A stretch of DNA of 64,000 nt from positions 48,711,813 through 48,775,812 of the forward strand of contig CM046855.1 in assembly GCA_025617745.1 (NCBI GenBank), written 5' to 3'. Source of the DNA: Heliocidaris erythrogramma (taxonomy: Eukaryota > Echinodermata > Echinoidea > Camarodonta > Echinometridae). This document shows, in pieces, positions 12,487 to 61,403 of the stretch. The position numbers were made by a program, and so were the translations under genes. The notes under the pieces were generated by a model. The model was given only the letters and a program-made list of their open reading frames with translations, was not told where the DNA came from and made no database searches. Position 1 is the first letter of the stretch. Each line of letters opens with the position of its first letter.

Positions 12487-12555
12487 CTGCACATAGAAAA
12501 AAACAACACTGAATATGTGAACGACTCCTCAATAGTGCCCTTTTTTACTGACCGT

Positions 12556-12718: not shown

Positions 12719-13256
12719 ACCGTCCAATCAACATCGTCATTTTCCATGTCGCAGGAGACAAAGAAGGGACTACCGCCACCATCAGGGTAGATGGGATAGA
12801 CTCCACTGATGTTCACACCACTGGCTTGAATCTCGGAGCAGTCCCGTGGACGGTCAGACGCTTGTGAGAAAATAAGAAATAACTCATGCTTGTGAAAAAC
12901 GCTTGATAACATGTCTATAATAAGCAGGCCCTCCTTGATTTTTAATTTCAAATTCAGCTGCCGAAGGAGCCATTTGAATCGAATACATTTAAATGATATG
13001 TGAATTACATCGAGGGCAAAGTAAGTGAAATTGATAGGTGAAACAAGGAGGTGGAAATAGCGGCGCTAATTAATCGCCTAGATGATAGTAGCTTTGCACG
13101 AAACAAAATCACTGCATATTTTGCTTTGCTGTGTCTTCGCAACAACCAAATTTCAAGTAATTGTACTTTCTTCTATTCATTATTCTTGTGCCAAGACTTT
13201 TGACACCAAGATTTTGAAAATCGGCAGGATCGTCGGAGTCATGTGATTTCTATATA

Positions 13257-38547: not shown

Positions 38548-39393
38548 CTGAACTACAAAAGAAACGTCACACTTTTCAAATTGATATCTTTTACACATGA
38601 TATTGGAATTTGATACGTAAAATCACATTTTATGCTTTTTTAACATCACAGATATGGCATTGACTGTCCATAACACATCATCATAACAAAATGTGATTTC
38701 TGTGTAGGATTAAAACTCATATCCTTTCCGTGAACATGGTAGTGCACATCCTCTATCCAGTGGGTTTAAAAGGGACCCAAAAGCTTCATCCTGTCATTCG
38801 TTTCCTGAGCGCTGTCACCATGCCACGTCTGACTCGAAACCAGAGGGAACAAGCCATCGGACGTCTTCATGCTGGCCAACGTCCTAGAGTCATTGCCAAC
38901 GACTTCAATGCAGCGTTCGGACAGTAGAGAGACTGCGGGAGCAATACAATGCAACCAACCGCACCAACGATCGTCAGCGCAGTGGTCGTCCCAGGGTGAC
39001 AACAGCACGTCAAGATCGCCATCTTCACCGGGACCACTTGCAGGATCGCTTCCGCAGAGCAACAGAATCGGCTCTACAGACTATTGGCACACACAACAGA
39101 CCAATTTCTGCAGCAACTGTTCGTCGTCGGCTGAGAAGCTTCAACTTGTCTTGTCGGCGTCCTGCTCGGGGCCCTATCCTCACCGTTCGACATCGTCGGG
39201 AACGTCTCCTGTGGGCCCAACAACGTCAGAACTGGCGCTATCAACGACGAGAGTCGTTATTGCACATCTGTACTTGTTAATCAAAACAAAGCAAAACATT
39301 TTCTCAGTTTTCACTCTTGAATAAAGAATATGTTTCATTGTAAATAAAACAGTTTCAAACACATACATGTGTGACGTTTCTTTTGTAGTTCAG
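38548..39393 (+). mobile_element. Tc1-type transposon, internally deleted (846 bp)
   Basis: Ends CTGAACTACAAAAGAAACGT and ACGTTTCTTTTGTAGTTCAG are perfect inverted repeats flanked by TA. The element contains only part of a transposase. Confidence 0.9.
38821..39280 (+). pseudogene. Tc1-type transposase N-terminal fragment
   Basis: The start MPRLTRNQREQAIGRLHAGQ opens the DNA-binding domain. A frameshift near 38920 moves the continuation (GRPRVTTARQDRHL, ISAATVRRRLRSF, PILTVRHRRERLLWA) to another frame. Sequence after RQNWRYQRR is missing, so the whole catalytic DDE region has been deleted. Confidence 0.88.
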
Positions 39394-39639: not shown

Positions 39640-42600
39640 ATGGATGAGCCATCAAGTCCAATGGGGTTAGAGGTCATAGATGCAGAAACCCCTGGTGGCT
39701 CCACTGTGACTGGCCAGAAGGAGTACACCCCTATTCTCAGCTTTACACCTAGACAATATCAGGTAAGCATTATGATATCTACCAAGTGGTGCTCTGGCAT
39801 TTGCTCCGGCAACAATTGCTCCATTCCCATATTTTGTCAGATGTGTAGGGTTTGAGTCATGGTTACAATAGGGTTTTATGTTCGCCTTTTTTTATGTTAA
39901 CCTCATACTTCGGATGGGTGGATTAGGCTTAGGGTTACACGTGAAGATGTAGTGTTTGGTGACCTTGGTCCAGGGGAGCGTTTCATCAAGCATTTTGTAA
40001 GTGATTTTTACTGAAAAATTTACTCTCAGCCAATCAGATGCAAGGATATCAGTAGCTTATAACAGTTGTCGGTAAAAATCACTGACAAAATGCTTGATGA
40101 AACGCTCCTCAAGGTTGAAGCTAGGAATTTGGTTAGTGGAGGATACTGACTGCAGGGGAGCATTTCATCAAGTGTTATGTCAGTGATTTTTACCGACAAC
40201 TGTTATAAGCTACTGAAATTCTTGCATCTGATTGGCTGAGAGCAAATTTGTCAGTGAAAATCACTGACAAAACACTTGATGAAACACTCCCCAGAGCAAT
40301 TGTTGCCAGAGCATTTGTGGTATTTAACCCTTGCTAAACATGTCTTCTTTTTTCTTCAGTATAGGTAAGGTCATTGTATACCAGACCGCGATCAAAAGGT
40401 CCCAGCTCTTCTACTTTAGATACATTGTGGAAAACACATATGTGTACAGTTTGTATGGGACCAGTCTAATTCTTATACTAAATCTTGTCTTAATTACCTT
40501 AGAGTATTAAGCTGTTAGGAAATTGTGAAACACAGCAAGAACTAATTTAATTGAGTCAGAGGTGGAATCCTATTATGGAGATGCTATCATAACATAACGT
40601 AACATGAAATAGTTGTTCATCTGGAGTTCTTGAAATACTAAGTTGTAACATTTTATTAAGTAGTTTTCAGTAATTTTGATATCAGTATTGTAAGATATTG
40701 TTAAAAGATACTTCATGAAACTGTAACATAAACTGAAATTGCTCCACAACAGTGCCATTAGATTTGAAATGTTTAAATTTGTTGAATTTTACCAGACAAT
40801 ACACTTGAGGTTATTGTTTAAAAAATGAAATATACTTCTACTAATTTCATTGATATTTATTTTGTATTTTAGTATTAACCCCTTCTGGGCCACCAAGTTT
40901 TTTTAGACAGATGTCGTGAATGAACTTTCAAGGATGGAATTCTGACTTGAAGTGCTTGGTTTTATTCATGAAATGGGTACAAATCATCTTCCATGGATCA
41001 TATAAACTTTATGACAGAGGTATCACGTAACTGGTTCTGTGTCTGGAAAAAAATGTAGACCTTCTTTAATAAACAAACACATTGTTGAACACTCAGGTTC
41101 ATTGGTGGGAATTGCTGCCCATAACACAGGAAGGGGTTAAAATATTTGTTTTTTTAATATATTGTTACAACTTATGAAGAGGCACTTTATAATTGAAATA
41201 TTGCTAAAAATATGTCTAGTAAATTTTTGATAAATCAAATTTCTTATGCACTATTGCAGCTTGAATTACTGGAAACAGCCCTGGAGCAGAACACAACAGT
41301 ATGCTTGCAATCAGGAACAGAGAAGACATTCCTAGCAGTTATGCTAATCAAAGAGCTCTCGGAGTCAGTGAGGATGCGTTTAGAGGATGGAGGAAAGAGA
41401 ACCATCTTTCTGGTCAATTCAGGTAATGAATTCTCTCTACCAGTAAAACAGACCGTCCAGGCAACAATTTGGCACTTAGATGTTTTTGGGATGATAAGAA
41501 GGTTACTTTGTTTGTACTCCAAGATTTCTAGATGGAAAGTGTGAGCGGAATTGAATTAAAGAAGTATCTTTCCAAACTGTGAATGCAATTTAGCATTTTG
41601 ACTTGTTACGCACTAGAATCAGGTAGTTCCTGCATTAAGTCTATAGGAATAAAAAAATTAAATCTAATTGGACACAAGTTTGTCAATAAACAGTAAATGG
41701 ACCTCTCTCATAGAGGCACTTGATAGCATCATTTGGAAGGTCTACAACTATGAAATCTTGTTGTGTTCTTGAGATATGTTGTTAATCATTGTCATTTTCA
41801 AAAATCGTGCAGAGCTTTGATATATTTCTGATTATGTTTACTGTAAACAAAATGGGGACTGCATTGTGTCTTAATTTTTTATATTTCTTCTGAGAAAAAT
41901 AGGATTGGCGATTTCAGTCAGCTTTTTCCTGTACAAGTCTGTATCATGTACACATACTGGTAACTAGTCTGTGACTTTGCTTTACCTACAGAATCCTGCA
42001 TATCAGAGTATGGAAATGTGATCCGCACCCACACTGATTTAGACGTAAAAGAATATCGGAATGGAGAAGAGACAATTTCATGGGACCAAAGAAGATGGCA
42101 GGAAGAAATTGAACATTGTCATGTTGCTGTGATGGACAGTGAGATCTTCCTCAAGCTTCTGCAGACGTCCTTCATGAGACTGTCCTTGGTCAATCTGCTC
42201 ATCCTTGATGAGTGTCATCTCACTCTTCAACAACTTCATCCATACCACCAGGTCATGCTAGAATTCAAACGGTGTCTCGGCAACGATCACCCTAGAGTTC
42301 TGGGGCTGACCGAATCGATTCTGAAGGGGGCATACCAGCCTTGTGCTCTAGAGAAGCAAATAGATATGTTAGAGAACTCGCTCCAAAGCACAGCAAAAAT
42401 TGCAACAAGTTTGACCAGCATCAGCAAATATGGCACCAAGCCCAAAGAAGCAGTCATCGTCTGTCAGAACTACGAGGACTGTGTTGAGTTGGTATCAAAA
42501 CTATCAAAGCTCCTAACAGATGGTCTTGACCAACTCGACCAGTTTGAATACTTGTTCAAAGCCAGGGACTTTGATGGTGAACTTGTAGATTGCAAGCGTG

Positions 42601-45600
42601 ATCCTGTACTGCCTGCCAGACAAGCCCTTGCGGAATGCCTGTCAGCTCTAACAACGATTGGCCCTCTGGGGGTCAAGATTCTTATCCCCATGCTGGTAAG
42701 AGAAATACTGAAGCTTGAGAAACATGAGTTCCTGGACATTCACCTTTTATTCCTGCAGCATGCGACTACCCAGCTCAGGATGGTTGAAAGGATATGTGAC
42801 AATGCCCTCAGGGAAGGAGGCAATTTCTTCGACCTGAAATTTCTGACTCCCAGAGTGAGGAGGTTGTTGGAGGTTTTAGCTGGATTCAAACCCAAGGAGG
42901 TGAGCCCCGAGGAGAAAGCTCAGCAGAGTGTTCATCGGGAGAGAACCAACAAGTATGCATCACGCAGGAAGACACACAGATCCCACAAGGACATGAAGAA
43001 GTATGTAACTGATCACAATGCTGCGGATGAAGTGGATATAAATGGTGATATCGACTGTTATCATATTTTTTTTTCAGGATCGAAATATTAGACTACAATA
43101 ATATGAATTTTTGTTACCTTGAATTATTTTTTTGATAATAAGAAATTTTCGAGGTCTTTAAGAAATTCCAACACTGTTTGCTATCATTAATTAGATTCAA
43201 TAAAATTCACACACATTTCATTGTTCAAACAATAGAAGGAGTTTGATGGCATTCTGTCTTAACATGTATTAACATCAAATTTCATAAGTTTTGTTTTATG
43301 CACAGTGATGGTCATATATAAATTAACTTATTTGAAATCATGACTACTTGAGCAGTGGCAAGATGAGAATAGGAATCATGTGGATGAAATTCAGGAGGCA
43401 TATCAGAGATGTGTTTGCTTTGAAATAGCAATATATCTTTATACTCTAGATCTTATAATACAGAAAACCTGGATATAATGTTGATTTCTCCACTTGTTCC
43501 CATGACCAGTCCAAGATGGAGACCTTTTGTACAAGAAGACCAAGACGAGGATGAAATGAGCGACGAGGAAGAAGAAGAGGAGGAGGATGAAGACGATGTG
43601 GGTGTCCAACAAACTGGTCGCTCGACCACGAACCTGTGCGGCATCATCTTCGTGGAGCAACGGTACACAGCAGCGGTGATGAGCAGGCTCTTCAAGAAAC
43701 TCTCTAAGAGGGATCCCAGGCTCCATTTTATCCTCTGTAGCTGCATTGCCATTGGGAGTGGGAGGCTAGGGGTAGCCAAGAAGTCTCCCGCACAGGTCCA
43801 GAACCAACGGAGGAAGCATGAAGAGGTACTGAGGAAATTCAGGAGGAGAGAGGTCAACGTCTTGGTTGCTACCAGCTCTGTGGAAGATGGTGGGTATTGC
43901 TCTTTATTTGAGTAATAGAGTTAAAGGTATGAAACATGTCCAGGAGTTATGACAGAAAATCACTCTATAGATTTGTAGGCATTATGTGAATAAATGAAAT
44001 ATTTGGTGCATGAATTATTACTACAAAATTGTTTAAGGTACATGTATGTACATGCATGCACATGCCAAATAGAATTGAATATTTATGAAACAAACTAGAG
44101 ACATTCCTCCCTAGATATTATGCAGTGCCAGGTGGTGTTCATCAGTTGTGACAGAATAAAATAGCTGCACTTTGCAGGGTAAAAAAGTATTTTGTCAAAT
44201 TTTTCTTATTCATTTGAAAATGTCAACTTCTAAGGGAAGTTTATTTGCACTTGACCTGTTGACCCCGTGACATGCATCAAACCCCATATAGAGCTGCTTC
44301 AAGCTCTCTGTGATTTACGGTAGCTGTTGAAGATTTGTATGATACTATTGTACCTTGGATATTACATAGAAGAGTGAATATTGTACTACATGAATATATA
44401 GCGTATGATGACTTGATGAAATTGTTATTTTGTGTATTTTGTGCTGCCAGGTGTCGAGCTTCCCCGCTGCAATGGCTGCAATCTTGTGGTGCGGTTTAAT
44501 CGACCAACCAGCTACCAGTCCTACATGCAGTCCAAGGCCAAGGCTAGAGCACCGACATCTCACTACCTCATGCTGATAGATGAACCTGATCTACAACCGT
44601 TCCTTAAAGATGTGCAAAGCTACCAGGAGTTTGAAAGGGTGAGTGATGTTTCTTATTTCTTTGCAAGTCCATACAGGGGCTATCTGGTTCAGTCAGTAAA
44701 AAAAAAAATTGTGGCAAGCTATTTAGCTCTGGAAAGTCCAAATGAGACCTGGTTAACGACAAATGAGCTCTGGTAAAGAACAATATGAAAATAGCGAATC
44801 CGGAAAGAGCTCTTTCAGTTTTCTAAAATGGCTTACTTCTCCACCTTTCTCTGTCTTTGGCCTTCGTGTATTTTGCACCATTTATCTCTGTTCATTAAGT
44901 ATTTCATTAAGTTCTCTTTAACAATTTTATTGTCTCGCCCACCGAAGGTGGAGGCAAGACTACGGGATCCAAATGGCGTTGTCCACCACAAATGTTAAAT
45001 TTACCTGCAAGACTCCCTTGTGACAAGTAATTTGGCATCTGTTAATCCCATTTGACCAAACTTGGGTCAGAGATGCACTTGGGCCCTTTATGGTGCTGTC
45101 GAGGGTCACATGATAAGGTCACAAGCCATTTGAGATTATATGTTAAAGTTTCCCTGCAAGACTTTTTTTTTCTCTCTCTATAGTATTGTTATCATAGAAG
45201 TTTTTAGCTGGAGTATATCATGGGGGAAATGAAGATAATCATTAATGGACCACATACTTGTCTGAAAAATACATGAACTGTACAGTTACAGTGATGGACT
45301 TTTCTTGGTGTGAGACCAAACTAAAATCAAGAGCAAACATCACATGCTCAGGAGAATGACATCATTGTTGCCTTATGGGGGCAGTTTTAGGCCAGAGAAC
45401 ATGGAATTCAAGATACATGTATATAGGGACCAGTCCTTCTGGACTCCCTTTAAAGAAAAAGTACAGCTCAATTACACATGGATGTGGGTAGTTTGTTCCT
45501 GTCATTGTGATGATCATGAATGTTGGAAATCATTTCCTCTAGGGCAGAAAGTTCAAACATGATGCAAGATACAGATGAGACAGAGCTTTAAAAAGGCCTT

Positions 45601-48600
45601 GGGGGGCAAATCGCAGTGGATTTAAAGTAAGCGTGCTTTGCATCTCCAGGGATTAGCTTGACTTTGCTTCGGGAGTATGCAGTTTCCTGTTTAAAGCTGA
45701 TGCAGTGATTTCAAAGACAATTCTCTTTGTGGTTGGACTTGTTTGATAATGGGAATCTCAGACTCTGTGTATTTTGTAAGGAGATGACCTGTTGCATGAG
45801 GAGAGATGTTACGTTTAAGTGTTAGCTGCTTGCTTAGCAGAGCTCAGGTCTGTTTGGTTCCTGTCAGATTTGCTAAGAAAAAAACGAAGAAACCAAAGGT
45901 ATGGATATACAGGTTTGAATGCAAGTGATGATGGTCATGTATTTGCAGAAACTGTAAATGACTATCTAGCTCAGATTGCTTGAAGCATCTGATGGAAGAA
46001 GTAAATTTAAATCATATTGTTCATGTTTTGCAGCAAATGAAACCTCAAATTGTGAATCCCTTTCTAATAGGTGATCAGTTTCCAGTTTTCAGAATTTTTA
46101 TTATCACCCTTTATTAATCTTAAAAATTGTGTAAAATTTTAATTGTAAATAGTAAGTAGGCTTTGCAAGTTTGTTTTTTTTTCCATTTGTGCTCTTAGAT
46201 GACAATTTTATTAAAGCTCACATACAGGTTTGGTAGCAATAAGGAAATTGTAAAGAAATGTGTTAAATATAGTCCCATCATGTTGTTCTCCTTATATAAA
46301 AAGATATATCTACATTGTATGAGATCATTGGGTATTCCATGCTTGATTTCCGGTGAATTATAGTGTAAATATCTGTGAGGAACGCTTCCTCACGCTAGGA
46401 CCCTTCCACCCCACAGCTCCTCGCACAACAATGCGAGGGCTTTGCACTTAAATAATGTGTGTGTAGCATACACAGTCCTCGATAGATTTTACACATGTAT
46501 ACACATTGTAGTACAACTTGCCGTTGTAGGAGTTTACATCCCTGATCTGGTATCTAAATTATTTTTTACTTCCCGTTTGTTTAATGTTTAACTTGAGGAG
46601 GAAAAAAGCAGCTTAGTATTGCTAGTATCTTGCTATTTATCATCTAAAATCAAAGAAATCTGATTAACAGATTTTGAGGGCTTACCAAAACCAGACATTA
46701 CCTTTAAGCTATGCATTGCATAAACAGCCTTTGTGTAAACAAGCAACTGCAAAGTATTGCGCAATATTTCAGATGGTAGAGGAATGAAGCCTACCATTGC
46801 GAAATACTTCAACCAAGGTACCTGCTCATCAGTGGTATTGCGCAATACCTCCACTAATGGTATATATTGTTGAGAGTTTATTGCGCAATATAGGTGAATG
46901 AACAATCTGTTTTTGTCAGCCTCTGGCAGTAAGCCAGAGTTGCTGAAGGAGTCATTGTTATTGTTCAGTAGCTGTTTTTAAAGGGAGTGTAGAGAATATT
47001 GAATTACAGAAAGACTGAATTAGAGAAAGACTGAATTAGAGAAAGACTAAGTGTTTCAGGAGATATTGTAGATGAGAAGATCAAAGTAAATCAAAATTTT
47101 CAATATTCAGATTATTTACTCATTTATTTCTTTATTTTTTCATAATGATCTATAAAGCAGTCATGCATTGCAACATGCAATTGGCATTGAAGCATGTATT
47201 TTCTTGTGCTCAATAGAAAAGAACAAACCATTGACAGTTAATGTGCACGGGCTATGCATTTAAAAGAACAATTTCCATGAGTAGGGATGAATAATGACAG
47301 TTAATAGTTAACATTTTTGAGAGTGCCATACATAAAAATACAAACATTAGTAACTGAGATTACTAAATGTACAAAATACAGTAACCAAAATGCTTGCAGG
47401 TAAATATCTTTTGCACCTTTTCAATTTTATTATTTATTTTTTTTATTAGACTTGTGTGCTACTCAAGTAAAAAACTTCCATTTTGTTTATGTGTCAAGAG
47501 CTTAGAGACTTCTGTAGTTTCAAAGCTTGAATCACCACAGTAATAATAATGATATATACAATTCGTAAGGTGCCAAATCCATTTGATATTGAATGCTCAA
47601 GGGGCACTAAGTGCAAAGACGAAGTCATAAGAAACCACATATACAAAAGTACAACATGAGCGGATAGAACGTAGAAAGGAAAGAAGCAATTAGGCAAAAT
47701 TGAAGAGATAGTACTGTATACACTATATATTTCATGGCAGATTGCCAGCAGAAGTAGTCAGTTGAATTTGTTGTCTCCTGGTCCAAAAATTGACCACTTA
47801 GCTTTCCAAAAGTACATCATCATTGCTGTTTGAAGACTGAAAATTTCCCGATCGCAAATTCAACCACTCGCGAAAGTCTGGCTAGTCCGATTCGCGAAAA
47901 TTTATGGAGTATACAGTACTCATTTTTATGCCTCCGCCCACTGTAGGTGGTGCCGGAGGCATTATGTTTTCGGGTCGTCCATCCGTCCGTCCCCTTTTCG
48001 TTCTCGCGATAACTTCAAAACCGTTTGGCGGATCAGCTTCTAACATCAGCTTCTAACTTGGCACATGTATTCATATGGGAGGGACAATGAACTGATTAGA
48101 TTTTGGGGTCTCAAGGTCAAAGGTCAAAGGTCACAGAGGTAATTATGTACATAAAAATGGTTCGTTATCGCAATAACTTCAGAACTGTTTGATAGATCAG
48201 CTTCTAACTTGGCCCATGTATGCATATGTGAGGGACGATGAACTGATTAGATTTTACGGTCTCAAGGTCAAAGTTCAAAGGTCATAGAGGTCATTATATA
48301 CATAAAAATGGTTCGTGATGTATGGAGTCTAGGCCTACCTACATGTATTTTAGAAATTTCAAGGGGAGAGTGGTCTATTTGCTATAAAATATCTATTTCC
48401 TTGGTGTATTTGATGATTGTAAGTCATCAATGGTAAGTTTTTTATTTGTACTGAAATAAATTTTCTGTCTCCTGTGCTTTTTAAGTGAAAAGATTTGTAA
48501 TTTTGTTGGACCAATCCGTTTTAGAGTGTACATGTATGCCATACATTTCGAATCTGGTGATGGCGGAGGCATAAATTCCGACCGCGCACGGTCGAAGATT

Positions 48601-51600
48601 CATCTAGTTAGATTATGTTTTAAGACTGCAACTGATCTCCTGTTTCTAAGCTCTCGAGGGTATTCCACAGCAAAGGCCCGGCATTAAAGGCCTCCCCCCA
48701 CTTAGTGTTAAGCGTAGAAAAACCAAGTAATCCACAGTTTTGAGAATGTAACAATCTAGACGGAATAAAAAGCTTTATCAAACTACTTGTAATATCATAC
48801 AGTGGAACAGAGCTGTGCACACATAATTATTCTCTAATTTTTATTCATTCATCTGAAGGTCTTGAATAGGAAGAGTAAAGGTAAGACCCAGCCAAAGGAA
48901 GAGGAAGTAAACCTCCTGATAGCTGACAAACAGATGCCTGCATATGTGCCCAAGGATGAGGAAGGATCACCCAGGGCCTCCATGACCACTGCCATCCAGA
49001 TTATCAACAGGTAAATCTAATCTGATCTAATCTAATCTTATCCAGTCCAATCTAATATATTCGAGGAAAATCTTTTAAAGTTTGAAATGAGGTCATGAAT
49101 TGCAAAGTGAGATATGAGTTAGATGTAAACAATGTTTATATCCGTGTGAATAGTGAAAAATGGCTACAATTTGTCTTATGAAAATCTTGTTTATCACCTT
49201 AAAGAGAAGGTTGAGTTCTGGTAAAGGGGGAAAATAAATTGTAAGCTTTCTCATTTTTATGTCAGTAGGAGAAATGTCCCTTTAAAAGGATTGCTCTTGA
49301 AATGCCCTTATACCGGTATTCGAAATATGACAAGAAATAGCTGAAAAGTTTAAATCAAATTCTCATGCCACGTGTGTGTAGTCCTTATACACATTTCTAT
49401 GTGCAGCACATGTGATTTTGAGCAAGACTGAGTCAAGTTCTTATTTTAATAATTCTAAAGCCTCACAGTATACACCAATTCTTTTGTACTACATGTACAT
49501 ATTCAACCTTTCCCAATTGCTTCCAGACAGTTTTTTTTCGCAATGTAATCGCATTATGAGCACTCGAGTTTCCAGCATTCTCGCCAGTTACATAACACCC
49601 TCCTGTTGATACCAAGGGTGAGGAATTTCAGAAAATAAAAACCATGTGTAGATTCCTCCAACAAGGGTACCGACAAGCGTAATAAATCAGTCAATGCCTA
49701 CCTTCAATCTCCAAAGTTGTTTTGGTCCTCCCAAACCACCCCCCTGGGATGTCATCAGGTCATATTTCACTTGATTTTCACTTTTCTGCTGAGAAGCCTG
49801 AACTCAACGTTATCTTATATTTGTGAAAAGGGTTACATCCTCTTGTCTGTTTGGCACCCGTACATGTAGATACTGTGCCAAGCTGCCTAGTGATGTCTTC
49901 ACTCATCTCACTGCCTCCTGTAAGATGGACCAAAGGGAGGGTGAGGTCAGTCCAGAATTCCAGGCTACTCTTCAGCTGCCCATCAACTCACCCATCAGAG
50001 AGCCCATTACTGTGAGTCATTCATTTCATTTCATTTACTTATTCCATCAATACGTGTATGTAGTTTAAAAAATACATACAAAACCAAATCAGAGCAAAAT
50101 ATAAAATTACAAGATAGAGGAGACGGCAAGAAAACCAAGGAGCTTTATAGAAAGCTGCCACCTTTGGTGTATACATAAATAAATACATAAAATGGCCATA
50201 CTGGATGGATAGAATGTAGATACATGTATATATGGCCAGTAATATAGGATTTGAAAGAAAAGTTAATCAACCAGGACAAACCCAACACAGACAATGTATG
50301 ATGCCAGACAAATGCCTAACATTGTTCGAGTAAATATGATTTATAATTGCATTTGAGTGAGTTTAAAGATGGACTTAATTTTATATCTGGGTGCAATTCA
50401 TTCCCTATAAGATACACTTACTGAACTTTCATTATGAAACTTTTTTCAAATGACCAAGTGACAGTGAAATAGTTCAAACAAAATTATCAAAGATGGGTAG
50501 GGATAGTGATTGTCTAACTTATAAAAGAAAAAGATCCTAATGAGTTACACATTTTGAAGAAAAAAATGACATTTTAGTCATTTTGTGTGTTGGAGCAAAA
50601 GGGGGGTGAGTTGTCGGGGGGTGAGTTGTCTGCCACTACATCACAGTAACATTACCAATTCGGCCAATTTGAGAAATTCTCATATGTGTAGTGATTACAA
50701 CTTTCCAAAATTCATAACTTTCTTATTGCTTGTCCGATTTTATTCACACTTTCAAAACAACTTGCCATTAAGGTTGGATTTCCCTTTGAAGTTCAATATA
50801 TTTTGTAAAGCAGGTGTTAAGTGTAAATTTGACCAATTAAGTGTGAAGAAAAGAAGCATATATTGGGATTGTCATCATTTTGGCATGATATCATATTTTG
50901 AGTGTATGTGTGTCATTGTTTGTAATGTAGTTCTTTTAGTGATCCAAAATAAGCAGATACATGTGACATGAAATTTTAAGATGACAGAATTTTCAGTGTT
51001 ATATTAGACATGAATACATTCACTGACTTACGAGAATATTATTTGAATCATTTATGCGTTATATAACTCATGTACAGAGAATATTCTGAATACCTTGGTA
51101 CAGGTCATCTCTGAACAAAAAGAAGAAACAAAATATCAAGGGATATGTTGTTTATTTCTCTTGTGAATGTAACTTCAATCCCACCCAACCAAAATGTAGA
51201 ATCGTCTTTTCTTTGTTTCATAGGGTCCATGGATGAAACGTAAGAAGTGGGCCACGATGGCAGTGGCTGTCAGAGCGGCTGAGATTCTACATAAAGCAGG
51301 TGCACATGTAATTAATATCAAACATGATATGTACTTCTATCATCTATAAATGTAAACAAGCAATGCTGCTGAAAGAAGTCATTTAGATATATTAATGTCG
51401 GTGATATAGAATATTGGATTCAGGAGAAAACTGTTTTTGTTCGAGATGCGAATGGATATATTTTAACAAAGAAGACATCTGATCTAGATCCTATTCAGGT
51501 GCTATAGTAGTATATTTTAAAATACTTGTACTGCGAAATTTGCAGCATTTAAAGAGATGGAGATAAGGTCTCAGCATTTTGAAGAAAGAAAAAGATCCTG

Positions 51601-54600
51601 ATAAACGCAAGGTTTATGGATTAGGAATTCACCACAACCTTGTCCCAAAACAGAGTGATACTTAGGAAGAAGCAATATTTTCAATATCATTGTGCATTAA
51701 AATTCCCATGACCTTGCCAAAATAGAACCCACAAAAACATAAAAACTGAATTATATTTATATAAGGTATAGTTCTCAGATGCAGTATTGTAGTTGTAGTT
51801 GTATGAATGCTTGTTTATTCTCCAGGAGAGTTAAATGACCACCTGCAGCCAATGGGGAAGGAATCCGTCTTGAAGGCCACTGATAATGCATTCAATCATC
51901 TATTTGCTGATGGTCAGACACGACCAGGAACAACTAAGAAGAGACAGTACTATGATAAAGAAGTAAGTATTCCCCCTCCCCTCTATCTTCATGTCTTTAA
52001 ACTAATGCTTTTTGCATTCCGTTGATTTGACTGGAGGTCCACAATCTATAGTGATAAGAAAATTATGGTGGAAAAAAAGACAAGAATTTCAGTAGAAAGA
52101 AACGTTATGTAGTCAACTATCATACAGAACTTGTTAGCATTATCTCTATAGCCTCATTCATACATGACGAGGTATACCGCCGCAGCACAATAAAACCATT
52201 TTATGTGTAAATGAGCAGCAAGGGAAGGTGAAAAAAAAATTAGCTATGCACAACAAAGGACCTTAACTACTCTCACCTATCTTATATGTGTTGTAAGAAG
52301 CAGAAATATGAGGTGCAGTTTTCTGTATCATGTAGTTTTGCCAAAGTGCTTTTGTTTTTAAATAGCAGTTTATTGCATCATGCGTGAACAAAGTGTAAAA
52401 CTACCCAATCATCATCCTCTTTGACCAGGTTGCCAAGTGCCTGCAGGGATGCCTGCCCAGGGCAGATCAACCTTGCTACCTGTACAGCATAGACATGACC
52501 CTGGCCTCGCCCCTACCGGACATCCTCAACATACGAGATAGGAAGCTCCACAGACCAGAGGAAACCCAGCAGTGCTTTGGCATCATCACCTCAAAGCAAA
52601 TACCAAGGGCAAGTAATAGGTTGAGGATCACCTGGACTGCTATAGATGCACAATTGTATACTCATAATTAGGTAACCAGGGACCTATGGCTTTAGGTCCT
52701 ATCCGAGGGACTTGGAAATGATTATTAATGCTTACCAAAGGGTACTAGCTCATTGCTAGGTTTTGAACCCTGGGCCTGCTGGTTATGAGAACACTGCTCT
52801 ACCACTAAGCAGTTGCCTCCTCTTCATTCCTGGACTCAATACTATACCTAGCTTTAAGCGGATCCCTAAACCTAACCTAAACCTGATTTGAAATATATTG
52901 TGGATAGTAAGTCCTTCAAAAAGAAAAAAATTATACTAAGTAAATGCATTTTGAATGACTAACCTTTTCATCATTTTGTGTGTTGGAACAATGGGAGAGC
53001 TGTCTGCCGCTTCATCACTGTGACATTATCGATTTGGCTCATATATGTATAATGATTACAACTATAAAAAAGTCCATAACATTCATACTGCTTATCTGAT
53101 TTCATTTAAACTTTCTCCAGTCTGCTTCTCTAATTTTTCTGCCTTCTTTCAGAGCAACTTGCCTTGAAGGTTGGATTTGCCTTTAACGGTTCTCTTGAAA
53201 TGCATCATTTCTACCTTGCAGTAATTCCAGATTACATTCAATTGATTGGTTACTATTTGATTTTGGTATATAACATACATTTTTCAAAGACTCTGGGCAA
53301 AGTCATCTCAGGCTTAGTAATCAACAGGTTTAAGAGTTTTGTAATGATCATATTCGTCTTTTCTTCAACCAGGTCCCTGGATTTCCAGTGTACACCCGGG
53401 CGGGAGAGCTTGCCGTTTCCATCAAGCTTCAGTCGGATGAGATGCGACTCAGTGGCACCCAGATCAGGAAAGCTCAGTCTTTCCATGGCTGCATGTTCTC
53501 TGAAGTGCTACGGTTGGACAAGCCTAATCTAGAGCTGAAACCCGAGAAGAGTCCAGCAAATTATCTCATTGTGCCTCTCAAGGAAGGTGAGAGATCGCAA
53601 AAACTGATGTTTCAGATCTTGTTAGGTAGTATTTCATTCCACATGTCTTCTGTAGAGAACAGTGATTATGGTGTGTGGAATTTCTTTTGTATTCTGATTC
53701 TTATTAATGGAGTAATCAGCAAAAATTGTTTTATATTTGGAATACATTACACAAAGAGTAATTTTATAGATCCAGGGGGTGTTTCATAAAGCTGTTCGTA
53801 AGTTACGCACGACTGGTGATCAGTTCTTGCGCTAAATGATTGAGAATCTGATTAGTATAGCACCCAAGAACATGTTCCAGTCGTTCGTAAAGTCATTCGT
53901 AACTTTACGAACAGCTTTATGAAACACCCCCCTGCATATATTGCACATGCATTACCAATAATCACATGTACATGTATACTGAAGACTCATTTACTTCAAG
54001 TTGTTCTCCAATGTGGTTTCCCATTTATGTTTTTTATGTTAATTATCATAAAGATATGTATGTCTAAATACACTTTTGGAATGAGATAAAACAACAATCC
54101 AAAAGATATGTATGTCTAAATACACTTTTGGATTGTTGATTACCCAGCAGGTTCTGCAAATGGTCCTTCTGTGATTGACTGGTCATTCCTTGAGGAGGTC
54201 AGCCTGAGCTCTGGTCATCTTGACCAACCTCCCCAACTCCCAGACTACAGCCAGAGCCAGTTTGAGTTTTCCACAGACATCCTAGCCGATGCTGTGGTCA
54301 CACCCATCTATAGGAACATTGATCAACCCCAACGATACTTTGTGGCTGACATCCTCTATGACTTACCTGTGACCAGTTCTTTCCCATCTGAGAAATATGA
54401 GACGTTTGTTGACTACTACTTTGAGCGATACGACATCCAGATATCCAACTTCCAGCAGCCGCTGGTGGACGTTGACTGCATGTCGTCCAGGCTGAATCTG
54501 TTGACCCCGAGGTACCTGAACCACAAAGGGAAAGCACTACCCATCAGCACGGGTCAGAACAAGAAGGGTAACCTACAGAAGAAGCAATACCTGGTGCCTG

Positions 54601-57600
54601 AGCTCTGCTACATTTACCCAATACCCGCATCACTGTGGAGGAAGGCAGTGTGCCTCCCATCCATCCTCTACAGACTGAATGCTTTGCTGATTGCGGAGGA
54701 ACTCAGAGTACAGGTGGCCATGGATGCTGGTATTGGCTTGATGACACTTCCACTAGAGTACCCTTACCCGAACCTAAGCTTCGGATGGGAAGGACTTGAC
54801 TTAGAGGCTCTTGAGAGACAAGATAAAGAGGCTAAAGAAGCAGCTGGATGTGAGGATGAAGTGAATGCAATACATGTTGAACCAAAGTGCAATAACAAAG
54901 AGCAGCTGAAAGGAAAGGAATGTGCAGCTGAGTTTGAAGTGATGACGAACAAGAGTAAGGACTGTGAAGTGAATGAGCAGCTGAAATCACTCTGTAACTC
55001 AAATAGAGGGGAACATTCTAGGAGTGATATGAATGTAAACAGTACTACTGAGAGCAAAGAGAACTTTGATGATGGAAACTTTCACCTTGATGATGATGGT
55101 AACGACCCAAAGATGTGCCTTGGACCCAGTCCTACCATTATATTGCAGGTGAGGATGACAAGATTTGTATCAGAAGAGATTTTCATGAGAAAGCTTGTAT
55201 AGTCATTACCAGTGTAGTAAATGTGCATAGGAACCCCTGAGTCGAATTTTGCCACATATTCCAGACTACCACACTTTGTGACTTTCTACTTTCCACTCTT
55301 GCACATCTTTGGTCATCAACTTATCGAAATGGTTTATTCTGTTATTGCGTTAAGTAACCTTTCGTAACCTCGGGTCTCCAGTATTCAGCATCAATATATC
55401 TAAGTACAAAACCTATTTGTTTTTGATCCATCTGGTGGAGTTTAATATTACCCAGTTCACTGAAAGTAAATTCAATGAAGCTTCCATATAAATTGAATTT
55501 AGGGCTGTGTCTGTTGTTCACAAGTATATTTTGAAGCACGGAAATTTCATTTAGGGAGTGGATTTGGAAATTATGACTTCTGATCAAGATCTATACTCCT
55601 ATAAACATTGATAACTTTTTGATGTGTTATTTCTGCTTCAGTCTTTGACCATGTCCAATTCCAGTGACGGTTTCAACCTTGAACGACTAGAGATGCTAGG
55701 AGACTCTTTCCTAAAGCAGGCTGTGACTGTCTATCTGTACTGCACGTACCCTCATCTGGACGAGGGCAAGCTGTCATTTCTTAGAAGTAAACAGGTCAGG
55801 CAAATACATATTTACATATTCATTCAGAAGTTCAGAATTTGTTTCATATTAATATACACTTCTACTTCTAAGACAATACTCAGCAGGACTCATAACTGAG
55901 GATGTAGTGGTAAGGAAGTGAATTTACATGCTCATTTGCAGTGCATGCATGTTAGTGCATTAAAATGTTGTGCATTTAGAATTTTTTTCTCAGTCAAGAT
56001 GCCAAGTGAAAGTGGAAGAAATTCTTTGAAGGTCACCAATGATATAACATCACAAGTGCTTTTGGAAGCCTCTTTCTAGCAGTTGCAAGTGTGCTTAGTT
56101 TATGAACGTTCAAAGATTGTTCAAGAAGCTGTGTATTGGAAGGTTTAAGATAAATATATTCAATACGGTAGCTTTTATCTAATCATCTCATTTTCATAAG
56201 TGTTTGTTTAGAAATTAATTCAGCGTCATTCACTGTCACTTGGGTGTATTATGTACTCAAAAACCATTCAAATATAGATTATACAGTCTTTAAGATTGTC
56301 TTAACTAGGTCTAGGCTGTGTCATGGGTAGCTAATATCACCCAAGAATGTGACTGTTCAACAATGTGTTTGGACTAATAAAAAGAAGATCAACATTTTTC
56401 CTCCAGAAGCAGAATCAGTATCCTATCCTCTATCCTGTAGTTTATATTCATGGAACAAATTTTATGCTCAGTTTATCAATGAAACAAAGCACTGTAACTC
56501 AAAATGTCAGTCTTGATATTTCATTTATAAGAAAGGGTCAGTATAGAGTATACAAAATAGCTATCCAAGATGCGAGGTGCTTTGTGGTGTAGAAATGTTT
56601 TTCAAGCATCTGTTAAGATGAGATTACGTGTGTGATGTCTGTCATTTTAAGTTCATGAATTGTATCCCCTTATTCTGCACAGGTTAGCAATTTCAACCTG
56701 TACTGCTTGGGTGAGAAGAAATCACTGGCTCATAAGATGCAGGTGTCATTGTTTGATCCATCCATCAACTGGCTTCCTCCCTGTCTGCTAGTCAAAGAGA
56801 GTTCCAAACCTGTTGTTAAGGAAGAGACCGAAACCGACCAGGATGCAGGATTTGTCATCGATACTTGGGATCCCTCAACCGTTGAAGGGCTTGATGACTT
56901 TGATGATGATGACTTTGACAGTGATCAGGGTTGGGAAGAGAACAGTGATGATTTTTCTGATGAGGAGATCGATGAGACCAAGGCAGAATGTCCAGATGAT
57001 TTCTTTGCCCGAGAAGAGAAGGAAGAGGAGCAGTGGTCATTCTCCGTCGGCGATCCGGATGATGTTCCAGGTTTGACGTACACCGGTGCCAAAGCCCAGG
57101 ATGTCGGGAGTGTCCCACAACTGCCGTACGAGATTCACACCCAACACAGCATGTCAGACAAGAGCATTGCAGATTGTGTGGAGGCCTTGATTGGTTGCTA
57201 CTTGGTTTCCTGCGGCTTCCGTAGTGCCCTTCTCTTGATGGCCTGGATGGGGTTGGACGTTCTTCCAACCATCAAGGGTCAATCCAAGAAGCAGAGTGAC
57301 CAATCCACTGACCCTTCCACTGATCTTCCAGTGTCCTGCCTCTATGGCTACCTCAAGCAACCAAAGTCTCCTCTCCTCAGGAGTGTGCCAAATGCAAAGG
57401 ACTTGTTGCAACAGCAGCTCCTGGGCTACGAGGGCTTTGAGAACACCATCAACTATCGCTTCAAGGACAGGGCTTACTTGTTGCAGGCCTTCACCCACTC
57501 ATCCTACCACCGCAATAGCATTACTGACTGTTATCAGAGGTAATTGTGTGTTTGTCTTTTTCATTTCCGTTTATGAAAATAACACATATGACATGGGTAG

Positions 57601-60600
57601 GATGGAAATATCAGACAGTGGTGAAATTTTTAATTTGTAAACAAATCTTTCGGCATATCCAGTGGTGAAATTGTTTGAGAAAAAGCATAAAGTTCCTCGA
57701 ATGAAATTTGTTACTATTTCAGTTTAGTCTGATAATCAACCCGATGTATTAGGAATATATTTTAAGATTTGATGGTGAGTCAGGACTAAAACACAAACAC
57801 ATGCCTTTTAGTTTAGTATTAAGCTTGTAGTTACAGTTTGTATCAAAATTGAATACTTTAATTTGCATCCTGAAACCACATCATGCTCAAGCAGAATGAT
57901 TGAAGGGTTATTCCAAACCTTTTCATTTTAATTATGCATGTCAGCTTTACTTATTGAATTGGAAATAAAAGGTTTGCTTTGTGTATACATGTATGTCCAT
58001 GCTTAACATCAAATAAAGCCTTATAAGCCACTCTTCCATCTGTAAAATCTTCCCAGACTTGAATTTCTTGGAGATGCCTTACTGGACTACCTCATCACTC
58101 GCCACCTTTATGATCATCACACCAACCTGTCTCCCGGGGCCTTGACCGATCTCCGCTCGGCCCTGGTCAACAACACCATCTTTGCTTCCCTGGCCGTCAA
58201 GTTCAACTTCCACAAGTACTTCAAGGCCTACACCGCCAACATGTTCCAGGTCATAGATAACTTTGTGACCTTTGTCAATGCCAAGAATGAAGCATTGGGA
58301 ATGGACTCACAGGTAGATATGCTCTTATCATACAAGTCATGTAGTTGACATGAGATGAACAGTGTGTGGAATTGATTTATATAAGTGCATTCTATTGGGA
58401 TATTGATAACTTTTGAAAGACACTGATCACTCAAAAACTATTTTGCTCTGAATGTGAAAGTTATTCCAATTTCCGAACCAAACGTAACATTAAATCAGAG
58501 TATTCAAACCGGATATATTTCCTTGAAAATGTGTCCTACGCCTTATGGTATGATATTGATGATAATAAATGTGATTTCCAAAGCACATATTAAATGAACT
58601 GGAGAGTTTCTCAATGCACTTAACAAGGTAAATACAATGATTAAAAAGTACTACTTTTCATTCTTGTAATTTTGACATGGCTATGATTTCAGCTCAAGTA
58701 CAGTGAGATGGATGGAGACCAAGAGGAGTCTGAAGATATAGAAGTCCCCAAAGCTCTGGGAGACATCTTTGAATCAGTGGCAGGTGCTATATACCTTGAC
58801 AGTGGCATGTCACTCAATGCTGTGTGGAAAGTATACTATCCTATGATGAAACAACAAATAGGTGATTGATGATGTTCCTCTTTTTTTTCTGATTTTTCTT
58901 GTTTTTGTTTTTGTTTGAATGGTTGTAATTTCTTATATGTTCATTGTTGTCATTGTTTTCTTAGTTGGCTTTATCTTTTTTTCTTGCTTGATCTCATTGT
59001 TTCTCTGTCTCCTTTTTCGTCTCCATTTTCCAGTTTGACTCGATTTTCATATTTTTTAAAATTCATTTTCCTGTTCTCCTTTACTTTTCTCTTGCTTTTA
59101 ATTATCATATGTGACCCGCGGCCTCAAAACCTACAATAAGTCGCACGGACCACAACGTAGCAAACAGCCCAAAGTAGTAAATTTTCTTGGGTCAGTCGAT
59201 TTTCTGTTTTTGATAGAAATGGGTAGTTTCGTTATCATTCTATCATGTCTCAAGTTTGTGAGTCGTAATTCGACTTAGAAATGTGTTTTGGGGGCATTTT
59301 AAAATGACTCCTTTTTTCACCTGTCGAGCTAAAATATTGAAATCGCCGAAATTTGTAATACTTTCATTCAATGCCAAATTACTACTTTACCTCTAAAGGT
59401 ATTAAATTGATTTTTTGAGTGAGTAAGGAATATGTGCTCCAGGGGCAGCGTGCCAAAATTCAGCCTAATCTGATAATCCCTTCATACCGGTTGCTATGGC
59501 CAGTTTTATACCCAGTTTTACTTGGGCGCACACAGAGAGTGAAGGTTTGGCACTCTTTTGTTCCGAACGTTAAATGACCATTTTATCTGAATAGGAGTTA
59601 TTGATTGCTGGTTACATACTGATCCGAAATGTGATATTTTAAGGTGTTATCACTGAGTAAACTAGGCAAGTGATATACCATTGGAAAGCTGAGAATCTTT
59701 ACTTTCAGAAAATGTATAAAACAAAAAAAAATAATTTTGGCGACTTATTGTAGGTTTTGAGGCGTCGGGTCACATATTCTTAATTCCACTTTCTCCACCT
59801 AAAAGTCCATAATATGCTCAGTTTCCTCTGCGAAGATCTCATGCAATATATTCCATCAACCATTTCCTTTAAGTAGAGTTGTTTATATTATTTTCATCCA
59901 GAGATTCTTTCCACAGAGACTGACATATTTTTATTTCTCTTTTCACCTTTCAGAGCAATATGCCTCAGACCTGCCAATATCTCCTGTGCGAGAACTGCTT
60001 GAGATGGAACCAGAAACAGCTCGATTTGGGTAATAATCTCTTGCACCTAGATATAATATTTGCTAGTGATATAAATAAGAGATTGAAAAATAGACAAGCT
60101 TGTATTTGTGACCCTCCACCACAAAATGACCAATAAGTCGGAAATTTGGGGTTTTCAAATTTCAACACAGTTTGAAAGCTTAGATTTTAAGCTTTAAAAT
60201 GATTTGTAACTTGTCTTGTATGGACAAAGCAAACCCTAAAATTACAATGAGAATGTCTACGTGTCAGACAGGCTAATGACCAAAACAATAGAGAAAACAG
60301 GCTCTAAAGAAGAGTGACTATTTAACAGCGCCTAATCTGTGTCCTATGGCTTGTCTCGCAAAAAGTTGAGTCAAAACTCCCTACCATATGCTGGAAAGTA
60401 CTAATTGAATTGGATTGAAACTTTCCATACCTTCAGAATATATATTTGTTTCTGAATTTTGAATATCAGACAGTGCATAGTTTTTAAGCTATACCAGAAA
60501 AGCGATGTGAAGTACAATCCCAGCAGTTTGGCACACAAAGTTTGAATGTCCAGGAAAACATGGTCATTTTGAATGAGAGTAAAAACATATTTTGACATGG

Positions 60601-61403
60601 TATTTTACCCTGAAATTTTGTCAGATGGTAGATTAATAAATGAACTTTCCGATGATACAGAAAACTTAAAATCAAAATTGCCACCCCGAAACCTCCCTTT
60701 TCAGCTGTTTACTCTAAAACTCCCATTTCGACTTATTTCGTCGTTTTGTGGTGGAGGGTCACATATTATAATTTGCTTAAGATCAATGTTTCAACAAAAA
60801 CAGGTATACGATAGCTGTGAACAATACATGCACAAGTCCAAAAGATCTGTGACAATCTGTGAAATGGTTATCAAATTTTCAGGTGCATATTGGGCTGTAA
60901 AATTGCTGCAAGGGGTTGGGTACAAGGAAGGGGTGCATTTTGTTGTTTATTTATAGGTCATGTATAGCTTCAGTAAGCCCTCAAAATCTTTTTGTCAGAT
61001 TTCTTTGATTTTAATTGATAAATAGCAAGAACTGGCAATACTAAACTAGTACAGTACCAGTATTATTGTCGAACACTTTAGCCAAGTGCTTTATTTCTCC
61101 TTTATCCTGTTCCTCAGTAATTTGCAATGACATCTTCCAAAGAAGTTTGATGAGGTCTCTCACATGACCTCTCTCACATGACCTCTCTCCTTCAAATCAT
61201 AGTTTCTGTAATATGTGATTGTTTCTGCCATTTTCTGTTCTCCTCGTAGGCCTCCAGAGAAGACCATCGATGGCAAGACAAGGGTCACCGTTAATGTGGT
61301 GGGCAAAGGGCAATTCAAAGGCATCGGACGGAACTACCACATCGCTAAGGCAACAGCTGCTCGTTTTGCTCTCCGTCTTCTTAAGAGCCAGCCTAAGAAG
61401 TGA
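39640..61403 (+). CDS. Dicer: Dicer ribonuclease (complete, 18 coding exons)
   Basis: Exons: 39640-39762, 41260-41422, 41992-43000, 43510-43889, 44451-44638, 48859-49010, 49870-50011, 51224-51299, 51826-51962, 52429-52608, 53373-53586, 54151-55148, 55642-55794, 56683-57539, 58057-58312, 58693-58861, 59954-60029, 61250-61403. They join without a frame break into 1,808 aa, near the usual animal Dicer size. Domain order is helicase (1-620), DUF283 (about 660-745), platform (about 790-920), PAZ (about 960-1075), RNase IIIa (about 1255-1530), RNase IIIb (about 1575-1735) and dsRBD (about 1745-1808). Dicer cuts pre-miRNA and long dsRNA in the cytoplasm into short duplexes for Argonaute. The catalytic acids are all there (E1271, D1275, D1469, E1472; E1593, D1597, D1700, E1703). 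The helicase motifs are altered. The start ATG follows a splice acceptor, so a 5' non-coding exon lies upstream. Intron 10 has a GC donor. It resembles vertebrate Dicer1 more than arthropod Dicer-2. Confidence 0.97.
39971..40109. mobile_element. Fold-back MITE, TTTCATCAAG family, Dicer intron 1
   Basis: Ends AGGGGAGCGTTTCATCAAGC and GCTTGATGAAACGCTCCT pair. The interior is in inverted order relative to the next copy. Confidence 0.85.
40153..40293. mobile_element. Fold-back MITE, TTTCATCAAG family, Dicer intron 1, second copy
   Basis: Ends CAGGGGAGCATTTCATCAAG and CTTGATGAAACACTCCCC. It lies only 43 bp from the previous copy. Confidence 0.85.
44935..45175. repeat. Dispersed repeat fragment in Dicer intron 5
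   Basis: It begins with an inverted pair, GTCTCGCCCACC and GGTGGAGGCAAGAC, followed by text of the type CTTGGGTCAGAGATGCACTT and AGGGTCACATGATAAGGTCA. It resembles the start of the larger element at 47931-48606 in design only. Confidence 0.4.
46756..46889. promoter_or_regulatory. Cluster of three ATTGCGCAAT palindromes
   Basis: Perfect ATTGCGCAAT occurs at 46756-46765, 46837-46846 and 46880-46889, with a one-mismatch copy (ATTGCGAAAT) at 46796-46805. This 10-mer is the classic optimal C/EBP-family bZIP site. The cluster is in Dicer intron 5. The surroundings also form short hairpins (GATGGTAG / CTACCATT), so it could be a repeat element rather than an enhancer. Confidence 0.35.
47931..48606. 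mobile_element. TIR element with internal tandem repeat in Dicer intron 5
   Basis: Ends ATGCCTCCGCC and GGCGGAGGCAT are inverted repeats. Inside are a GTCCATCCGTCCGTCC tract and two tandem copies of a unit of about 135 bp (GATCAGCTTCTAACTTGG, TGAACTGATTAGATTTT, CTCAAGGTCAAAGGTCA). This repeat style is common in marine invertebrates. No transposase is encoded. Confidence 0.75.
50580..50795. repeat. Dispersed repeat, copy 1 (Dicer intron 7)
   Basis: It starts CATTTTGTGTGTTGGAGCAA, continues through GTAGTGATTACAACT and ends AAGGTTGGATTTCCCTTTG. A second, diverged copy lies in intron 10. Confidence 0.7.
52665..52840 (-). mobile_element. tRNA-derived SINE, minus strand, Dicer intron 10
   Basis: On the minus strand, CTTAGTGGTAGAGCAG matches a pol III A box and GGGTTCAAAACC a B box. 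The anticodon-loop-like CTCATAA lies between them, as in a tRNA-Met-like head. A non-tRNA body follows toward 52665. It is inside a protein gene, its stems are imperfect and it has a body, so I call it a SINE rather than a tRNA gene. Confidence 0.6.
52970..53190. repeat. Dispersed repeat, copy 2 (Dicer intron 10)
   Basis: Matches 50580-50795 at TTTTGTGTGTTGGAACAA, CTGTCTGCC, AATGATTACAACT and CTTGCCTTGAAGGTTGGATT, with an insertion before the last block. Confidence 0.7.
53773..53933. mobile_element. Fold-back MITE in Dicer intron 11
   Basis: Ends CCAGGGGGTGTTTCATAAAG and CTTTATGAAACACCCCCCTG pair, and the arms continue through CTGTTCGTAAGTTACG and CGTAACTTTACGAACAG. It is 161 bp. Confidence 0.85.
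54051..54133. repeat. Direct repeat of about 31 bp in Dicer intron 11
   Basis: AAAGATATGTATGTCTAAATACACTTTTGGA occurs at 54051-54081 and 54103-54133 (first 20 bases AAAGATATGTATGTCTAAAT). Each is next to CAATCC/GGATTG words. It ends 18 bp before exon 12 and overlaps the branch-point zone. Confidence 0.8.
54151..55148 (+). other. Dicer: Dicer exon 12: PAZ domain and connector
   Basis: This 998-nt exon encodes residues 922-1254. The PAZ domain (about 960-1075) holds the RNA 3'-end pocket region with [30 protein letters not shown] and [13 protein letters not shown]. Then come [20 protein letters not shown] and [14 protein letters not shown], the connector helix leading to the RNase core. From about residue 1130 the sequence turns acidic and low in complexity, as in other Dicers before RNase IIIa. 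Confidence 0.9.
59109..59775. mobile_element. TIR element (667 bp), Dicer intron 16
   Basis: Ends ATGTGACCCGCGGCCTCAAA and TTTGAGGCGTCGGGTCACAT are inverted, and pairing continues through ACCTACAATAAGTCGC / GCGACTTATTGTAGGT. There is no coding capacity. It is a relative of the element in the next intron. Confidence 0.85.
60107..60763. mobile_element. TIR element (657 bp), Dicer intron 17
   Basis: Ends TGTGACCCTCCACCACAAAA and TTTTGTGGTGGAGGGTCACA are inverted. The inner words AATAAGTCG / CGACTTATT are shared with the 59109-59775 element. There is no coding capacity. Confidence 0.85.

What the first reader, a model, noticed from the sequence alone, without database searches (positions are those of the whole stretch)
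41320..44551. Dicer with three altered ATPase motifs in an otherwise intact helicase
Seen: motif I is GTEKT (E62, GAG at 41320-41322), motif III is TES (E203, 42312-42314), and motif VI is QSKAKAR (585-591, 44528-44548), while DECH is intact and the fold is well conserved. Known: in SF2 helicases the motif I glycine-lysine loop binds ATP phosphate and the motif VI arginine completes the site; Drosophila Dicer-1 has a degenerate helicase and works without ATP on pre-miRNA, whereas Dicer-2 needs ATP for long dsRNA. Inference: this Dicer keeps the helicase as a scaffold for pre-miRNA loops and is a poor processive dsRNA enzyme, which raises the question of what senses viral dsRNA in this animal.
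Basis: partly seen in the sequence, partly recalled or inferred. Interest (0 to 1): 0.8.

Follow-up and report, generated by a model that had tools for sequence, protein, structure and literature searches.

The report
Echinoderm Dicer with decayed ATPase motifs
The only Dicer gene found in this echinoderm genome looks intact, but several of the helicase motifs that normally bind and burn ATP are altered, so it is probably a microRNA-making enzyme that cannot power its way along long viral double-stranded RNA.

Summary
GAG 41320-41322 (E62), GAA 42312-42314 (E203) and QSKAKAR 44528-44548 lie in splice-consistent exons of an 18-exon Dicer gene (39640-61403, +, 1809 aa, no internal stop). Pfam finds its platform, PAZ, RNase III and dsRBD parts. 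The decay is wider than reported: motif V (D to E plus three extra residues), Ia and IV also differ. The strongest change is E62, at the Walker A glycine directly before the lysine. No second Dicer was found with three different domains; one of these searches recovered Drosha. Best reading: an ATPase-dead or crippled helicase kept as a structural module in a sole, miRNA-type Dicer, parallel to but different from Drosophila Dcr-1. ATPase loss is inferred, not measured; no other echinoderm Dicer could be compared here.

The parts
39640..61403 (+). Dicer gene, 18 coding exons, 1809 aa
   Evidence: Joined model with open frame and a terminal stop; GT-AG splice sites, except a GC-AG donor after exon 10; exon 12 acceptor could be 54148 or 54151, one residue apart; Pfam domains
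39640..39762 (+). exon 1, N-terminus through TPRQYQ (Q motif kept)
41260..41422 (+). exon 2, holds motif I
41311..41328 (+). motif I SGTEKT (human TGSGKT); E62 at 41320-41322 replaces the glycine before the Walker A lysine
41992..43000 (+). exon 3, rest of Hel1 and Hel2i, motifs Ia, II and III
42207..42218 (+). motif II DECH, intact
42306..42317 (+). motif III LTES (human LTAS, Dicer-2 LTGV, Dcr-1 LAGP)
43510..43889 (+). exon 4, acidic insert and first half of Hel2 (motif IV FVEQRYT)
43874..44482 (+). motif [17 protein letters not shown], split by an intron (43890-44450); D to E at 44456-44458 and three extra residues relative to human Dicer
44451..44638 (+). exon 5, second half of motif V and motif VI
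44528..44551 (+). motif [10 protein letters not shown] (human QSKGRARA): G to A588, R to K589, R591 kept
54148..55148 (+). exon 12, includes the PAZ domain region
55642..55794 (+). exon 13, RNase IIIa signature [13 protein letters not shown]
56683..57539 (+). exon 14, rest of RNase IIIa ([10 protein letters not shown]) and start of RNase IIIb
58057..58861 (+). exons 15-16, RNase IIIb signatures [10 protein letters not shown] and [11 protein letters not shown]
61250..61403 (+). exon 18, C-terminal dsRNA-binding domain and stop

Best explanation
This is probably the animal's single Dicer (Dicer-1 type). It keeps a complete platform/PAZ, RNase IIIa/b and dsRBD measuring-and-cutting machine. Its RIG-I-type helicase keeps recognisable DEAD and Helicase_C domains but has probably lost efficient ATP binding and hydrolysis: the Walker A glycine before the lysine is glutamate, motif V has Asp to Glu plus a short insertion, and motif VI has GR to AK. 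Shown: the sequence, the intact rest of the protein, and no second Dicer detected. Inferred: the enzyme measures pre-miRNAs from their ends through platform/PAZ, and the helicase acts as a static wall or loop-contacting module. It would then be a poor, non-processive cutter of long dsRNA, and viral dsRNA sensing would fall to the RIG-I-like genes of the same genome.
For: Gene model and codons. Pfam: nine families above their cut-offs, among them DEAD, Helicase_C, Dicer_PBD, Dicer_dimer, platform, PAZ, Ribonuclease_3 (two stretches) and Dicer_dsRBD. Identity to human per domain, over aligned residues: Hel1 93/199, Hel2i 48/152, Hel2 79/161, PAZ 74/149, RIIIa core 70/113, RIIIb 115/159, dsRBD 48/66; the RNase III signature stretches are conserved. 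Human and Dicer-2 both have GSGKT, V/ID in motif V and QSKGRAR in VI, where this protein has GTEKT, VE and QSKAKAR. Dicer_dimer matched this locus only (the 14 control genomes did not ring, so this gene is its only positive control). Hel1 gave 10 matches at E up to 10: 2 are this gene, the other 8 have E 0.3 or worse. RNase IIIb gave 3 matches: 2 are this gene, one at E 0.03 reads as Drosha (by recall). RIG-I C-terminal domains: 7 matches over cut-off, 3 near full length. Six of six DECH-bearing helicase regions among 15 fetched also have canonical GxGK[TS]. Literature: loss of the putative ATPase function is tolerated in mice while loss of the domain is lethal (PMC9645528, passages).
Against: K63, T64, DECH, the Q motif and R591 are retained. 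Motif columns are not preferentially lost: of 44 motif columns identical in human and Dicer-2, 33 are kept, against 40 of 69 other columns (Fisher P 0.07; Dcr-1 26/44 and 31/69, P 0.18). Human Dicer, long called ATPase-dead, was reported to hydrolyse ATP under low-turnover conditions (PMC11658451, passages), so sequence does not settle activity in either direction. No transcripts, no biochemistry and no other echinoderm sequence were available.
Confidence: 0.7

Rival explanations
1. The helicase still binds ATP and hydrolyses it slowly: the retained lysine, DECH and second motif VI arginine suffice for a weak ATPase or an ATP-gated conformational switch.
For: K63, T64, DECH and R591 retained; motif III varies even in active Dicer-2; motif columns are somewhat better kept than the rest; human Dicer activity under low turnover (PMC11658451, passages).
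Against: Glutamate in place of the Walker A glycine next to the lysine should clash with and repel the phosphates (established P-loop knowledge, recalled); changes in I, V and VI together.
Confidence: 0.2
2. ATP-driven handling of long dsRNA is supplied in trans by an RIG-I-like partner, as C. elegans Dicer works with DRH-1, so the animal keeps antiviral dicing although its Dicer helicase is dead.
For: RIG-I-like genes with canonical motifs I and II exist in the genome; the DRH-1/Dicer precedent (PMC11095941, search listing with start of abstract only).
Against: No physical or genetic link tested; C. elegans DCR-1 itself keeps a functional helicase (PMC10328071, passage).
Confidence: 0.1
3. 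Assembly error or a non-functional allele: the true coding sequence has canonical motifs.
For: Each named substitution is explainable by one nucleotide; no reads available.
Against: 1809 codons open, consistent splice sites and strong conservation elsewhere; changes spread over separate exons, with a whole-codon insertion in motif V; no frameshift or stop.
Confidence: 0.05
4. A second, intact Dicer exists and takes the long-dsRNA role, as in insects.
For: The search works exon by exon and could miss a highly diverged gene; the assembly may be incomplete.
Against: Dicer_dimer, Hel1 and RNase IIIb searches find only this Dicer, and the last was sensitive enough to recover Drosha; Asterias rubens is reported with DICER1 and no DICER2 (PMC11114477, passage).
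Confidence: 0.05

Closest known systems
Drosophila Dicer-1 (PDB 8dfv)
   Same: Dicer-1 type enzyme with degenerate helicase motifs and ATP-independent miRNA role
   Different: Dcr-1 lost motif I (RSSKE), II (EDCH) and III (AGP) but keeps the motif V Asp and motif VI GRAR; here I, V and VI are changed while DECH is kept. Dcr-1 has Dicer-2 beside it; here no second Dicer was found.
Human/mouse Dicer (PDB 5zak, 7yym)
   Same: Single Dicer in an animal with RIG-I-like receptors; same domain order; helicase thought to be structural in miRNA biogenesis
   Different: Human and mouse Dicer keep the canonical ATPase residues (GSGKT, VD, QSKGRAR); here the residues themselves changed.
Mollusc and annelid DICER1 with diverged DECH box (PMC11114477; PMC10159624, passages)
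   Same: Sole Dicer-1 with altered ATPase motifs
   Different: Reported there for the DECH box, which is intact here.
Drosophila Dicer-2 (PDB 6bu9, 7w0a)
   Same: Homologous helicase architecture
   Different: Canonical motif I, V and VI and ATP-driven translocation; motif III TGV.

Membership tests
Animal Dicer | Helicase, Dicer_dimer (DUF283), platform, PAZ, two RNase III domains and dsRBD in order | tested here: met
   Pfam scan of the 1809 aa model
Animal Dicer | RNase IIIa and IIIb catalytic acidic residues | tested here: met
   [33 protein letters not shown] and [11 protein letters not shown] aligned to human; that these hold the catalytic residues is recalled
ATPase-competent SF2/RIG-I-like helicase | Walker A GxGK[TS] | tested here: not met
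   GTEKT, K and T kept, glycine before K lost
ATPase-competent SF2/RIG-I-like helicase | Motif II DExH | tested here: met
   DECH 42207-42218
ATPase-competent SF2/RIG-I-like helicase | Motif VI QxxGRxR with two arginines | tested here: not met
   QSKAKAR, one arginine kept, one replaced by lysine
ATPase-competent SF2/RIG-I-like helicase | dsRNA-stimulated ATP hydrolysis | not testable with these tools
   needs purified protein
Degenerate-helicase Dicer-1 (Dcr-1 type) | Substituted catalytic helicase motifs with intact nuclease | tested here: met
Degenerate-helicase Dicer-1 (Dcr-1 type) | ATP-independent pre-miRNA processing | not testable with these tools
   needs biochemistry
Degenerate-helicase Dicer-1 (Dcr-1 type) | Same motif pattern as Drosophila Dcr-1 (I, II and III lost, VI kept) | tested here: not met
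   different set of sites
Arthropod-like two-Dicer system | Second Dicer locus with intact helicase | tested here: not met
   a highly diverged or unassembled gene cannot be excluded

The most novel reading that the evidence does not exclude
In this echinoderm lineage the only Dicer independently lost its ATPase by direct mutation of the nucleotide pocket, after a deuterostome ancestor that still had some activity (ancestral reconstruction, PMC10159624 abstract) and by a different route from vertebrates, which keep the residues. Together with the RIG-I-like genes in this genome, this would make it another case of RLRs replacing processive antiviral dicing.
Probability: 0.5. Interest if true: 0.6.

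Novelty: new member of a known kind. Interest (0 to 1): 0.45.

Why it matters
A sole Dicer with altered pocket residues gives a ready natural variant to assay, and predicts that these animals lack processive siRNA production. A published virus-small-RNA survey that includes a starfish detected no RNA viruses in that sample, so it could not decide this for echinoderms (PMC6085071, abstract and passages).

Tried and rejected
Close relatives in other collections: the Hel1 query in viral contigs and the RNase IIIb query in genome contigs gave no relatives, so whether the changes are shared by other echinoderms could not be tested. Apart from the window's own genome and PDB sequences, the collections I could search are of viruses, plasmids, bacteria and archaea; metagenome scans were capped at zero.

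Alternative exons carrying canonical motifs were sought in window 36000-64000: none in Dicer-like context.

A test that losses are concentrated in motifs failed: motif columns are kept at 33/44 against 40/69 elsewhere, P 0.07. The claim is therefore about specific catalytic residues, not a general motif-directed decay.

RdRP search: no match, but the tool warned that nothing rang anywhere, so no conclusion is drawn. The motif search in RLR regions used canonical patterns for motifs I and II, so a decayed RLR without DECH would not have been seen. A QSKGRAR-type motif VI in helicase context was seen in one of the 15 fetched regions (L034). Helicase and C-terminal-domain exons were not joined into gene models, so calling them one gene is inference; the two C17 regions have no C-terminal-domain match.

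Structure prediction was not run: only single-sequence input was possible, which would be unreliable for this domain.

I then compared the two translations of cox1 with PDB sequences: code 9 scores 932.2 bits and code 5 919.7 bits against bovine COX1 (1occ). I also corrected the coordinates of the repeat noted in passing.
Full report
What was checked. The window lies in a 1.06 Gb genome of 26 contigs. COX1 sits on contig C24, 12,905 bases long, of which I fetched the first 10,000. Along it lie, named from their translations by recall except for COX1 and the tRNAs: the end of nad2, a gap where 16S rRNA is expected, cox1, tRNA-Arg, nad4L, cox2, atp6, cox3, reverse tRNA-Ser, nad3, nad4, tRNA-His, nad5. 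Recalled from general knowledge, this is the sea urchin/sea cucumber order. The frames are open under both code 9 (echinoderm) and code 5, but cox1 read with code 9 fits bovine COX1 better than with code 5 (932.2 against 919.7 bits).

Gene. tblastn of human Dicer located the exons. Splice sites were chosen at GT-AG boundaries with one GC-AG donor, giving 18 exons at 39640-61403, an open frame of 1809 residues and a terminal stop. Non-coding 5' exons were not sought. Pfam finds nine families above their cut-offs: DEAD, Helicase_C, Dicer_PBD, Dicer_dimer, platform, PAZ, Ribonuclease_3 (two stretches), Ribonucleas_3_3 and Dicer_dsRBD. Identity to human is 820 of 1742 aligned residues overall. By domain (boundaries set by me) it is 93/199 in Hel1, 48/152 in Hel2i, 79/161 in Hel2, 74/149 in PAZ, 70/113 in the RIIIa core, 115/159 in RIIIb and 48/66 in the dsRBD.

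The motifs. Motif I is SGTEKT against TGSGKT in human and Dicer-2. The lysine and threonine are kept, but the glycine directly before the lysine, the fixed glycine of the Walker A loop (recalled), is glutamate. Motif II DECH is intact. Motif III is LTES, but this position is LTGV in ATP-driven Dicer-2 and LAGP in Dcr-1, so it carries little weight alone. Motif VI is QSKAKAR against QSKGRAR: one arginine is replaced by lysine, the other kept. In RIG-I both arginines flanking G731 of motif VI are described as coordinating ATP phosphates (PMC12976907, preprint, passages seen). Motif Ia lost its QQ and motif IV has R to Q; both are also lost in Dcr-1.

Result against a simple story. Of columns identical in human and Dicer-2, this protein keeps 33 of 44 in motifs and 40 of 69 outside (P 0.07). 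Dcr-1 keeps 26 of 44 and 31 of 69 (P 0.18). Motifs are thus not preferentially destroyed. The case rests on which residues changed.

Other genes of the pathway. Dicer_dimer gave one match in the genome, in this gene; none of the tool's 14 control genomes rang. Hel1 gave 10 matches, two in this gene and eight at E 0.3 or worse; four of those eight (L004-L007) translate to DECH-containing helicase stretches. RNase IIIb gave three matches, two in this gene and one at E 0.03, which reads LEFLGDAVIEFLSSTHLYHLFPDLEEGGLATYRMALVQNQHL, recognised by recall as Drosha. The RIG-I C-terminal domain gave 7 matches over its cut-off, 3 nearly full length. In the 15 regions fetched around such places and around the C17 helicase hits, the six with a DECH box all also had a canonical GxGK[TS] (L025, L029, L031, L033, L034, L036). 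The patterns sought were canonical, and helicase and C-terminal exons were not joined into genes. Piwi-domain exons gave 22 matches in three clusters on C4 and one each on C9 and C20; the C4 ones read as AGO type (by recall).

Mechanism. Shown: sequence and architecture. Inferred: ATP binding is lost or crippled, so the enzyme does not thread long dsRNA, and the helicase remains as a structural module. The best precedent is mouse Dicer, where loss of the putative ATPase function is tolerated but loss of the domain is lethal (PMC9645528, passages). That paper also says the closed-state lock residues are conserved in vertebrates but not in invertebrates, so the exact vertebrate lock cannot be assumed here. 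Human Dicer was reported to hydrolyse ATP under low-turnover conditions, with K70A reducing it about 400-fold (PMC11658451, passages), so a residual activity remains possible.

Known or new. Degenerate Dicer helicases are known in Drosophila Dcr-1, and altered ATPase motifs or DECH boxes are reported in molluscs and annelids (PMC10159624, PMC11114477, passages). PMC10159624 reports some ATPase activity in the reconstructed deuterostome Dicer-1 ancestor and none detected in the vertebrate ancestor, and asks for study of echinoderm Dicers. A sea urchin Dicer of 1850 aa, 41% identical to human, is tabled in PMC2686710 (passages), without its motifs in what I saw. My ten paper searches listed no paper whose title or shown start of abstract describes these motif changes in an echinoderm Dicer; some lists were shorter than the number of papers found (12 of 25, 10 of 14), and subscription papers are mostly not in that library. 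I therefore file it as a new member of a known kind, with a different set of altered motifs and apparently without a second Dicer.

Noticed in passing
G000:C4:37414802-37651382 (L037-L042, L047, L048): Three AGO-type Argonaute clusters (by recall) within about 240 kb, two of them nearly identical in the exons seen, besides two further Piwi-domain clusters on C9 and C20. Recent AGO copies, or an assembly duplicate, in an animal where I would expect one AGO (recalled).
   Followed up: partly
G000:C5:50774212-51364395 (L018-L021) and G000:C16:3161524-3291484 (L016, L017): Four near-identical partial RIG-I C-terminal domain exons within about 590 kb on C5, and two near full-length ones about 130 kb apart on C16: a locally multiplied viral-RNA sensor family.
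   Followed up: partly
window 32801-34600 and 35356-37155: A stretch of at least 1.8 kb repeated at 99.3% identity, the copies starting about 2.6 kb apart, upstream of the Dicer gene; the ends of the repeat were not mapped.
   Followed up: partly
window 1756-2639 (+), 10310-11212 (-), 38888-39277 (+): ORFs resembling Tc1-type transposases (by recall), one just upstream of Dicer exon 1.
   Followed up: no
window 21910-23146 (- strand): Reverse-transcriptase-like ORFs of non-LTR type (by recall), in two frames.
   Followed up: no
window 3962-5005 (+) and 12532-13065, 23328-23642, 24777-25088 (-): A RING/B-box (TRIM-like) ORF and fibrinogen-domain-like exons (by recall): possible innate immunity genes beside Dicer.
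   Followed up: no
window 52609-53372: Intron 10 of the Dicer gene appears to use a GC-AG donor (AGG|gcaagt), needed to keep the frame.
   Followed up: yes
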